33,828 nt of DNA from Acidimicrobiaceae bacterium (GTDB lineage: Bacteria > Actinomycetota > Acidimicrobiia > Acidimicrobiales > RAAP-2): contig JABEUR010000078.1 of assembly GCA_013044405.1 (NCBI GenBank), positions 1 through 33,828 on the forward strand, given 5' to 3'. Under the pieces are notes generated by a model. That model was not told where the DNA came from and searched no databases. It worked only from the letters and a program-made list of their open reading frames with translations. Each line of letters opens with the position of its first letter. Position 1 is the stretch's first letter. Positions 12,943 through 15,823 of the stretch are shown piece by piece. A program made the position numbers and the translations under genes.

Positions 12943-13593
12943 TCAATTCAGGTGGAAGCGTGAATGCGAGGTCGTTGAACCCGTGCCCCCGGATGGGACC
13001 CGGCGCTTGGACGGTCGTGCGCCAAGCGCGATGAGTTCCGCGCTGCGCTGCATGGTCGCCTGGGCGATGGCGATCTTCAGGTTGGCTCGAGCGGTGACGA
13101 TCTCGGCCGAGTTGGTCGAAGCGGCGACTTCGGCTTGAAACGTGACGCGCTGCGCGTCCACGGTATCGGCGTAGTCCTGGTTGATCGCCTGACGCTCCAG
13201 GTTGTATTCGCTCAAATTGAGCGGACCGACCACCGGTGGTCCGGCTCCGAGATCGGCCAGAGCCGAAGTCTCCAAGGCGTCGGCGGTGGCCACCGCCGAG
13301 AGCAGCGTCGCTCGTGCCCCAGCCCGGGCTGCATCAGAGTGGGAGTGATTGACGGCGAAGTAGAAGGACATCTTGGCCGAATTCACCGCTTGCTTGTAGG
13401 TGATACGTATCTGGTGGCGATGGGAGATGTAGGCACTTTCGGCGTTAATCCAGCCCGCGGCGGAGTTGTTGGGAGCGTTGAAGGTCGTGGTCGGTCCCGA
13501 TTGTGAATCTGCGAAGGCCGAAGCAGGTACGCCCAGGGCCGCCGATCCGCACATGGCGCACACCAACGCCACCTTCGCCACCAGCGCGCGCAT
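12943..13593 (-). CDS. Predicted secreted Ala-rich protein of unknown function
   Basis: SD GAAAGGAG 5 nt before ATG at 13593; signal peptide MRALVAKVALVCAMCGSAALGVPASAFA|DS with A-x-A site. Confidence 0.65.
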   Translation of the reverse strand: MRALVAKVALVCAMCGSAALGVPASAFADSQSGPTTTFNAPNNSAAGWINAESAYISHRHQIRITYKQAVNSAKMSFYFAVNHSHSDAARAGARATLLSAVATADALETSALADLGAGPPVVGPLNLSEYNLERQAINQDYADTVDAQRVTFQAEVAASTNSAEIVTARANLKIAIAQATMQRSAELIALGARPSKRRVPSGGTGSTTSHSRFHLN

Positions 13594-13637
13594 CGACGCT
13601 CCTTTCAACACTCCGGCTACGAGCGTAATTTCAGACT

Positions 13638-13691
13638 CTGTGATTTTGCTGTGAGCCGACTGTTGCACACCTGTGAATCACTGGTGAAAGC
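13638..13691. promoter_or_regulatory. Candidate PhoP/PhoB-type operator: five 11-bp-phased direct repeats (CTGTGA-like)
   Basis: CTGTGA 13638, CTGTGA 13649, CTGTTG 13660, CTGTGA 13671, CTGGTGA 13681; GTGA cores at 13640/13651/13673/13684 with GTTG at 13662, i.e. exact 11-bp phase. Confidence 0.65.
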
Positions 13692-13748
13692 CTAATTCCC
13701 AGAGTCATCTCGGGCGTGGACGATACGCTCGCTCCAGGAGGTGAAGGT

Positions 13749-14438
13749 GTGGCCAAGATATTGATAGTGGACGACGAACCGGGCGTGCGCGACCTATTGC
13801 AGGACGCTTTGGAGTCCGCGGGTTACCAGACCGAGATGGCCTCGAACGGTGCCGAGGCGCTGGACCAGCTTCGCCGGCTCAACGCAGACTTGTGCATCGT
13901 GGACATCAACATGCCACTCATGAACGGCTTCGAATTCCTCGAGAAGTTGCGTCAGTACGACACCCAGACGCCGGTGCTGATGCTCTCGGCGCGCGATACG
14001 CCTGACGACGTCGCTCGCGGACTTCGATATGGCGCCGACGACTACGTGCGAAAGCCCTTCGGGATCGAAGAGCTGCTCTTGCGAACCTCGGCGATCCTTC
14101 GACGCACCGGAATCGACTCGAGTGGCGACCTGATCTTGATCGCCGGGCCGATCGAGATGAACGTCGATCGACACGAGCTGAGGGTCGAAGAGCGTGAGGT
14201 TGAACTCTCGGCCACCGAGTTTCGACTGCTCGAGGTGCTCCTGGAACGCAAGGACCGCCTGGTCACCAGGGAGCAATTGCTGCGCGAGGTGTGGAACATT
14301 GACTTCGACTCCGAGACCTCGGTGCTGGACACTTACATCTCGTACTTGCGCAAGAAGATCCACTCGAGTGATTTCGCACCCATCACCACAGTTCGAGGTG
14401 TCGGTTTCAAGTTGGTGAGTCCCGTCGGGGATCAGTGA
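13749..14438 (+). CDS. OmpR/PhoP-family response regulator (probable GTG start)
   Basis: Strong SD AGGAGGTGAAGG just upstream; VAKILIVDDEPGVRDLL, CIVDINMPLMNGFEFLEKL, GADDYVRKPF; winged-helix C-terminus LDTYISYLRKKI. Confidence 0.92.
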   Translation: MAKILIVDDEPGVRDLLQDALESAGYQTEMASNGAEALDQLRRLNADLCIVDINMPLMNGFEFLEKLRQYDTQTPVLMLSARDTPDDVARGLRYGADDYVRKPFGIEELLLRTSAILRRTGIDSSGDLILIAGPIEMNVDRHELRVEEREVELSATEFRLLEVLLERKDRLVTREQLLREVWNIDFDSETSVLDTYISYLRKKIHSSDFAPITTVRGVGFKLVSPVGDQ

Positions 14439-15823
14439 AATTAGTCACCCGGCTCACGATCCTGCTCACTGCCCTCACCGTGCTGCTGGTCGCTGGTATT
14501 GGGTGGTTCGCCGTCAACCAGAGCACCCGCTCGCAATACTCCCGTCTGGATACTTCGATCAATTCAGTCGTGGCCAGCGGAACAGGTCACCCAAACACCG
14601 CGTTGAGTGACGCCCTCAATATCGTCCAACAGCAGAGTTACGACCTCACCCTCGAAGTCGTCGATCCCAACGGCAGCGTCACCCAAGTCAGCACCGGCAC
14701 GGTCGTGCCAAAGCGCGTCCCGACTATCTCCGATGCGCTGAATAGCTTGCGCAACGTGCGCAGCTTGCCAGACCTTCCCGGCTTCCACGTGCGATCGCTG
14801 TACGTGGGAGGCGGGGCGTATCTGGTGGTCATTGGATCGACCAACCAAATCGACCAATCCAGCCGGAGACTCGCGTTCGACCTGGTATTGGTCGGGGTGC
14901 TCGCCACCGCGCTGATGATGTTCCTCGTGCGCCTCTTCACCCGACGCGACCTGCAGACGATGGAACGTCTGATCCACTACGCCAGTGCCGTTGCCGGTGG
15001 TCACGACGAGGGCCCGATCCCGCCGAGTCTAGGTAGCAGTGACGTTAGACAGTTGCAGGCTGCCTTAGCGATCATGGTGGCGGCCCTGCACGAGAGGATC
15101 TCCATCGAGTCGAGGAGTGTTGAGGCAATGCAGATGTTCATCGGTGACGCCTCGCACGAACTGCGCACCCCCTTGACGGTGATCAAGGGGTACAACCAAC
15201 TCTTGGCCAACCCGTCGATGAGCGAAGAGCAGCGGGTCAGAGCCATCGAACGCATGCGCCGCGAGATAGAGCGTATGGAGTCGCTCATCACCGACCTCCT
15301 GCTCGCGGCCGAACTTCGTGAGGCGCCACAGAACTTCGACCAGATCATCGACCTCAGCCTGTTGGTCGCGACCAGAACGGACGAATTCAGCAACGACCAT
15401 CCCGAGAGGACCGTAGCGATTTCGGTCGCGGCGGACCTCGAGGTTCGCGGTCGCGAGGATCTCCTGGACCGTCTGCTCACGAATGCGTTTGGCAATATTG
15501 CCCGCCATACCGAAGCCCATTTGCCCGTGCGCGTCAGCGCGACGAGAGATGAGCATTGGGTGTACTTGCGTATTGAGGACGGCGGTAAGGGTCTGCCGGC
15601 CTACGGTCTTCGACCACAGCGATTTGGTCGATTCGACGTCTCGCGATCGCGCGAGACGGGCGGATCAGGTCTGGGCATGAGCATCATGGCAGATATTGTT
15701 GAAGCATTCGGCGGTACTTTCGTCACCTCAAAAAGCGATTTAGGCGGACTGGCGCTGAGTTTCACCTTCCCCGTTGGCGTCGCACGAACTGGGGGGAGTC
15801 ACGAGGTCGTTGTACCGGCTTGA
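14435..15823 (+). CDS. Sensor histidine kinase
   Basis: Two N-terminal TM segments flanking a sensor loop; H-box FIGDASHELRTPLTVIKGY; ATPase motifs IEDGGKGLP, GGSGLGMSI; GTGA overlap with response regulator. Confidence 0.92.
   Translation: MKLVTRLTILLTALTVLLVAGIGWFAVNQSTRSQYSRLDTSINSVVASGTGHPNTALSDALNIVQQQSYDLTLEVVDPNGSVTQVSTGTVVPKRVPTISDALNSLRNVRSLPDLPGFHVRSLYVGGGAYLVVIGSTNQIDQSSRRLAFDLVLVGVLATALMMFLVRLFTRRDLQTMERLIHYASAVAGGHDEGPIPPSLGSSDVRQLQAALAIMVAALHERISIESRSVEAMQMFIGDASHELRTPLTVIKGYNQLLANPSMSEEQRVRAIERMRREIERMESLITDLLLAAELREAPQNFDQIIDLSLLVATRTDEFSNDHPERTVAISVAADLEVRGREDLLDRLLTNAFGNIARHTEAHLPVRVSATRDEHWVYLRIEDGGKGLPAYGLRPQRFGRFDVSRSRETGGSGLGMSIMADIVEAFGGTFVTSKSDLGGLALSFTFPVGVARTGGSHEVVVPA

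What the first reader, a model, noticed from the sequence alone, without database searches (positions are those of the whole stretch)
13638..13691. Five-unit, 11-bp-phased CTGTGA repeat array between a PhoP-like two-component system and a divergent secreted-protein gene
Seen directly: CTGTGATTTTG-CTGTGAGCCGA-CTGTTGCACAC-CTGTGAATCA-CTGGTGAAAGC, with GTGA-type cores at 13640, 13651, 13662 (GTTG), 13673 and 13684, exactly 11 bp apart. On the minus strand the first two units read TCACAGC-AAAA-TCACAGA. Established knowledge: OmpR/PhoB-family regulators bind head-to-tail to direct repeats one helical turn apart, and M. tuberculosis PhoP prefers TCACAGC-N4-TCACAGC. Inference: this is a multi-dimer operator for the adjacent regulator, placed between two opposing -10-like elements (TACGCT on minus at 13627-13622, TAATTC on plus at 13693-13698), so it may both autoregulate the system and activate the secreted-protein gene.
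Basis: partly seen in the sequence, partly recalled or inferred. Interest (0 to 1): 0.75.

Follow-up and report, generated by a model that had tools for sequence, protein, structure and literature searches.

The report
Conserved operator for secreted-protein gene family
A row of DNA repeats spaced one helix turn apart, conserved across dozens of related uncultured soil and acid-water bacteria, sits in front of genes for a previously uncatalogued family of small secreted proteins and is very probably where the neighbouring two-component regulator docks to control them; it is a new, well-supported case of a known kind of switch.

Summary
Units of CTGTGA-type sequence lie exactly 11 bp apart at 13638-13681, with a weaker fifth unit at 13682-13692. 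No shuffle reproduces it, and no other place in the window matches it.

The pattern is conserved ungapped in about 55 non-redundant orthologous intergenic regions from Acidimicrobiaceae MAGs. Units A, B and D are strong, C is weak, E is not conserved. Unit A lies 10 nt from a TAC..T -10 element of the divergent secreted-protein gene in nearly all.

A profile built from these sites finds 20 further sites in relatives, none beside a regulator. In 15 the gene downstream is a paralogue of the same secreted helical protein; four precede a second secreted family; one is cut by a contig end. The window genome has two more family members with degenerate arrays.

The array is therefore primarily the pho-box-like operator of the secreted-protein promoter. 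Its likely reader is the adjacent OmpR-family regulator, whose recognition helix resembles M. tuberculosis PhoP.

Autoregulation is unsupported by geometry. By curated cut-offs the regulator is not PhoP/PhoB. Binding, direction of regulation and signal remain untested.

The parts
13638..13648 (.). unit A of the array (CTGTGATTTTG; TCACAG read towards the divergent gene), 10 nt from the divergent -10
13649..13659 (.). unit B (CTGTGAGCCGA), the most conserved unit in orthologues
   Evidence: T 62/62, G 62/62, T 60/62, G 62/62 at its core
13660..13670 (.). unit C (CTGTTGCACAC), weakly conserved; better kept at paralogue sites
13671..13681 (.). unit D (CTGTGAATCAC), strongly conserved
13682..13692 (.). 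degenerate fifth unit E (TGGTGAAAGCC); in phase but not conserved at this locus in orthologues; E and F units recur at distal paralogue sites in relatives
13622..13627 (-). -10 element TACGCT of the divergent secreted-protein promoter; fixed 10-nt spacing to unit A
   Evidence: in several orthologues the start codon is 6-7 nt downstream (leaderless), supporting the assignment
13599..13606 (-). ribosome-binding site GAAAGGAG of the secreted-protein gene
12943..13593 (-). divergent gene: 216-aa secreted helical protein carrying two copies of an alpha-helical hairpin domain; no Pfam or NCBIfam family
13724..13729 (+). conserved -10 element (GATACGCTC) of the response-regulator promoter; no conserved -35
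   Evidence: TAC[GC]CT anchored in 58 orthologous regions, G in 56 of 58 at the fourth base, no information at -35
13749..14438 (+). OmpR-family response regulator (Response_reg + Trans_reg_C), proposed reader of the array
14435..15823 (+). cognate sensor histidine kinase (HisKA + HATPase_c); a homologue follows the regulator in all 49 loci examined

Best explanation
The array is the operator of the divergent secreted-protein promoter. Phosphorylated dimers (or tetramers) of the adjacent OmpR-family response regulator bind head-to-tail to the TTCACAG-type units, one helical turn apart, on one face of the DNA. Unit A lies 10 nt upstream of the -10, so the units overlap the place of a missing -35 element. 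The regulator would then recruit RNA polymerase through sigma region 4, as in the PhoB/pho-box (class II) arrangement, and switch on the secreted helical protein. The same kind of operator controls further members of this protein family elsewhere in the genome and in relatives. Shown here: phasing, conservation, fixed promoter geometry, the distribution of sites, the families of the genes behind them, and recognition-helix similarity to M. tuberculosis PhoP. Inferred: that this regulator is the protein that binds, that it activates rather than represses, and that an envelope signal sensed by the kinase drives it.
For: 34 of 38 TGTGA-TGTGA distances in 65 non-redundant orthologous upstream regions are multiples of 11. 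Ungapped alignment of 62 regions: units A, B, D and a -10 at fixed 10-nt spacing, no -35. A profile built only from regulator-adjacent sites finds sites in 38 of the 40 same-genus genomes that have the regulator orthologue and in none of the 8 that lack it (Fisher p 1e-7, not corrected for shared descent). Twenty distal sites not used for building the profile lie in the same orientation and spacing before secreted-protein genes: 15 precede members of the same family, four a second secreted family, one is truncated. Two further family genes in the window genome carry arrays of four and two units at the same place. The base-contacting recognition-helix residues of M. tuberculosis PhoP N212, V213, E215, S216, Y217, Y220 (PMC4832192) correspond to S, V, D, T, Y, Y here; D, T and Y217 are invariant and V and Y220 nearly so in 61 orthologues. 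PhoP recognises TCACAGC-N4-TCACAGC.
Against: No binding, footprint or expression data exist. The sequence cannot distinguish activation from repression, since a regulator bound over -35 could also repress. MtrA, another OmpR-family regulator, has a similar motif (GTCACAGCG direct repeats; PMC13189361), and MtrA-like paralogues exist in this genome. At the home locus, loss of the array and the regulator gene together may be a single deletion, so co-occurrence there is not independent. A few genomes without the regulator keep a member of the secreted family (G013, G016, G022).
Confidence: 0.78

Rival explanations
1. Shared bidirectional operator: the same array also autoregulates the regulator-kinase operon. 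This would be in addition to, not instead of, control of the secreted gene.
For: The array is the only conserved element upstream of the regulator's -10 apart from the -10 itself, and that promoter has no -35. In one clade the profile window ends only 6-7 nt from the regulator's -10.
Against: Distance from unit D to the regulator's -10 varies from 21 to 57 nt without helical phasing, whereas the divergent spacing is fixed. Distal arrays have no regulator gene beside them.
Confidence: 0.35
2. The array is bound by a different OmpR-family protein, such as an MtrA-like paralogue, and the adjacent regulator is not the reader.
For: MtrA motif GTCACAGCG in direct repeats resembles the units (PMC13189361); MtrA-like proteins are encoded in this genome.
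Against: MtrA-like proteins are equally present in all 8 same-genus genomes that lack the adjacent regulator, yet those have no array sites at E <= 0.01. Published MtrA units are spaced by 5-6 nt. The adjacent regulator keeps the PhoP-like recognition residues. None of the MtrA-like hits passes the MtrA cut-off, so how close they are to true MtrA is open.
Confidence: 0.12
3. The regulator represses the secreted-protein promoter by covering its -35 region.
For: The site overlaps the -35 position.
Against: No -35 consensus is present to be covered. The close spacing to -10 and the direct repeats match class II activation as described for PhoB and proposed for M. tuberculosis PhoP at lipF and pks2 (PMC3413638, PMC3348028).
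Confidence: 0.15
4. CRP/FNR-type site or chance repeat without function.
For: TGTGA is the core of CRP half-sites (general knowledge).
Against: CRP/FNR sites are inverted repeats; here all units are direct. Chance is excluded by shuffles and by conservation.
Confidence: 0.02

Closest known systems
E. coli PhoB pho box (CTGTCAT-N4-CTGTCAT), class II activation
   Same: Direct repeats one turn apart, overlapping the -35 position; same regulator domain architecture; fixed close spacing to -10.
   Different: Motif reads TTCACAG, not CTGTCAT; 4-6 units; the regulator scores 178 against a cut-off of 296 for PhoB; targets are secreted helical proteins, not phosphate genes.
M. tuberculosis PhoP operator (TCACAGC-N4-TCACAGC)
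   Same: Nearly the same 7-bp motif and the same 4-bp spacer; recognition-helix base contacts identical or conservative.
   Different: The regulators share only general OmpR-family similarity (phmmer E 1.6e-45, no closer than to PrrA or RegX3); different regulon; paired with a divergent secreted-protein gene and its paralogues.
MtrA operators of actinobacteria (GTCACAGCG repeats)
   Same: Similar half-site sequence in direct repeat.
   Different: Published spacing 5-6 nt; the adjacent regulator is far below the MtrA cut-off (163 against 300 bits).
cpxP-cpxRA arrangement of E. coli (from general knowledge)
   Same: Small helical secreted protein gene divergent from a two-component system, with an operator of the system in between.
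   Different: No sequence relation found; no significant fold match to any solved structure (best Foldseek E 0.24); whether the secreted protein feeds back on the kinase is unknown.

Membership tests
OmpR/PhoB-type direct-repeat operator | two or more direct repeats one helical turn apart with a strict spacer | tested here: met
   11-bp period, ungapped in about 55 orthologous regions
OmpR/PhoB-type direct-repeat operator | linked to a response regulator with a Trans_reg_C winged-helix domain | tested here: met
   PF00072 and PF00486 hits; adjacent in orthologous loci
OmpR/PhoB-type direct-repeat operator | bound by that regulator as a tandem dimer | not testable with these tools
   needs EMSA or footprint
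Class II (pho-box) activated promoter | site overlaps -35 at fixed short distance from -10, no good -35 | tested here: met
   10 nt from unit A to -10 in nearly all aligned sites; the position 17 nt from -10 falls between units A and B and reads AGCAAA, not TTGACA
Class II (pho-box) activated promoter | expression depends on the regulator | not testable with these tools
   no expression data
PhoB / phosphate PhoP orthologue | passes curated model cut-off | tested here: not met
   TIGR02154 178.3 against 296.2 bits; NF008078 132.4 against 336 bits
MtrA orthologue | passes curated model cut-off | tested here: not met
   NF040689 163.7 against 300 bits
M. tuberculosis PhoP-like recognition | base-contacting residues of the recognition helix | tested here: met
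   N to S, V, E to D, S to T, Y, Y; D, T, Y217 invariant among 61 orthologues; similarity, not proof of the same specificity
CpxP/Spy/ZraP periplasmic chaperones | sequence family match | tested here: not met
   no Pfam or NCBIfam assignment; one of 37 members weakly hits ZraP at E 0.005, not a call

The most novel reading that the evidence does not exclude
A dedicated two-component system of Acidimicrobiaceae, with distant relatives in other Actinomycetota, whose main or only regulon is one uncatalogued family of secreted helical-hairpin proteins (plus a second secreted family), each under a phased 4-6-unit operator; the secreted protein might feed back on the kinase, a Cpx-like envelope circuit that arose independently.
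Probability: 0.3. Interest if true: 0.6.

Novelty: new member of a known kind. Interest (0 to 1): 0.45.

Why it matters
It gives a strongly supported operator, promoter geometry and candidate regulon for a two-component system in a lineage known almost only from metagenomes, and it attaches an uncatalogued secreted-protein family to a regulator. Because the motif and recognition helix resemble M. tuberculosis PhoP, it also offers an independent natural data set of multi-unit operators for that type of DNA recognition.

Tried and rejected
Loose two-unit patterns (TGWGA-N6-TGTGA, one mismatch) match the genome at background level, 97 against 98 for the reversed control, so only multi-unit profiles were trusted. 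The one other exact two-unit match (C114:6115) lacks a clear -10 and unit D and was dropped. The plus-strand -10 at 13693 was rejected. Pfam, NCBIfam, PDB sequence and Foldseek searches with the secreted protein gave no family or fold. A hairpin over the ribosome-binding site of the secreted genes looked suggestive but does not exceed shuffles. Plasmid search negative. Weak profile hits in other families of the order (G069, G074) were not pursued and may be chance. A literature search for a two-component system of this kind in Acidimicrobiia found nothing specific.

Full report
Observation. The window shows CTGTGATTTTG-CTGTGAGCCGA-CTGTTGCACAC-CTGTGAATCAC followed by TGGTGAAAGCC at 13638-13692. 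The cores are exactly 11 bp apart. The first four units agree at 22 of 24 hexamer positions; none of 3000 dinucleotide shuffles of the intergenic region reaches this at any step from 8 to 22, and no other place in the window does at an 11-bp step. The strict motif TCACAGC-N4-TCACAG occurs once in the assembly.

Surroundings. To the right lie an OmpR-family response regulator (GTG 13749) and a histidine kinase. To the left is a divergent gene for a 216-aa protein with a signal-peptide-like start and no Pfam or NCBIfam family. Named relatives in public genomes are Acidimicrobiaceae/Acidimicrobiales MAGs, many from palsa, bog and other cold or acidic sites by their isolate names.

Conservation. 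Orthologues of the regulator (55-80% identity) exist in 40 of 48 same-genus genomes sampled and in some 45 genome-contig loci. In 65 non-redundant upstream regions, 34 of 38 TGTGA pair distances are multiples of 11. An ungapped alignment of 62 of them shows units A, B and D as strong information peaks and unit C as a faint one. A block A..GTA (reverse complement of the -10 TAC..T) sits 10 nt to the left of unit A in nearly all. A few members (L011, L013, L085, L089-L092) fit less well, and one or two orthologous regions (L070, L088) show no array. Several orthologues start the divergent gene 6-7 nt after this -10, as leaderless genes would, which supports the assignment.

Which promoter the array serves. 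The regulator's own -10, TACGCT usually preceded by GG, is extremely conserved and lies at 13724-13729, not at 13693 as first proposed; there is no -35. The distance from unit D to it varies from 21 to 57 nt. The distance to the divergent -10 is fixed. The position where a -35 would lie, 17 nt from the divergent -10, falls between units A and B and reads AGCAAA. This is the geometry described for PhoB, whose sites overlap the -35, and proposed for M. tuberculosis PhoP at lipF and pks2 (PMC3348028, PMC3413638).

Other sites. A sequence-only profile built from 43 regulator-adjacent sites finds the window site (E 1.1e-5) as the only significant one in its own genome. Among relatives it finds sites in 38 of the 40 same-genus genomes with the regulator and none of 8 without. 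Sites used for building match by construction; the informative ones are the 20 distal sites read here. All have the same orientation and 10-nt spacing to a -10, and every one with enough contig precedes a secreted-protein gene. Fifteen encode members of the window protein's family, often with two domain copies; four encode a second secreted family of about 240 aa; one is cut by a contig end. Several of these arrays continue to phased units E and F. No regulator gene adjoins them. A protein profile of the family then found two more members in the window genome: C168 has a clear four-unit array (score 23.7 against a maximum of -5.9 elsewhere in the window) and C73 a two-unit remnant.

Who reads it. 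In M. tuberculosis PhoP the bases of TCACAGC are read by N212, V213, E215, S216, Y217 and Y220 (PMC4832192). The regulator here has S, V, D, T, Y, Y, and the D, T and first Y are invariant in 61 orthologues; RegX3 differs more. This makes the adjacent regulator the natural reader. MtrA is a rival because its repeats are GTCACAGCG in mycobacteria (PMC13189361). MtrA-like proteins are present in all eight same-genus genomes that lack both the adjacent regulator and the array, so they do not explain the distribution. Co-occurrence at the home locus could be a single joint loss, so the weight rests on the recognition helix and the linkage.

The secreted protein. Consensus aY..ar.aIn.tF..AV..A...y..Al..At..A.R.aAR......AI..A...R..AL..LG.PP. 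AlphaFold2 predicts two helical hairpins in the window protein (mean pLDDT 75; above 90 for most of the second hairpin). There is no significant fold match (best E 0.24). Divergent homologues accompany related two-component systems in a few other actinobacterial MAGs (L089-L092), with units A and B still recognisable in L090 and L092. In a sample of the phylum, matches outside the family of the window genome are sparse and weak.

Verdict. A genuine, conserved, phased operator of a known kind. Best reading: class II activation of a secreted-protein gene family by the adjacent response regulator. Activation, binding and signal are inferred, not shown. Autoregulation is possible but unsupported by geometry.

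Noticed in passing
window 12943-13593 (minus): The secreted protein carries its domain twice (about residues 45-114 and 127-190), while most direct orthologues have it once; many distal paralogues in relatives also have two copies.
   Followed up: partly
L186-L188 (G033:C12, G003:C59, G010:C1): In the closest relatives a second family gene with its own array lies about 900 bp further upstream, in tandem with the divergent gene.
   Followed up: partly
L189, L190, L192, L197: A second secreted family (about 240 aa, motif KDNRVYAVMSPQVFEMIEASVV, no Pfam) is preceded by the same array and promoter.
   Followed up: partly
window 13724-13748 and orthologues: Downstream of the regulator's -10 many orthologues have ATGG about where transcription should start, opening a 5-codon frame that ends in a TGA overlapping the regulator start (ATGA/GTGA); it may be only a ribosome-binding site, and the window itself has AGGAGG there.
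   Followed up: no
5' leaders of the distal secreted genes (L191-L205): Recurrent GTTCCTTTGAAAGGAGAAC around the ribosome-binding site suggests a hairpin, but predicted folding does not exceed shuffles.
   Followed up: yes
L006-L010, L012, L015, L048, L052: The divergent secreted gene appears leaderless (ATG 6-7 nt after the -10) in one clade, whereas the window gene has a leader with a ribosome-binding site.
   Followed up: partly
G013:C73:62293, G016:C12:5736, G022:C205:6526: Three genomes without the regulator still encode a member of the secreted family; how these are controlled is unknown.
   Followed up: no
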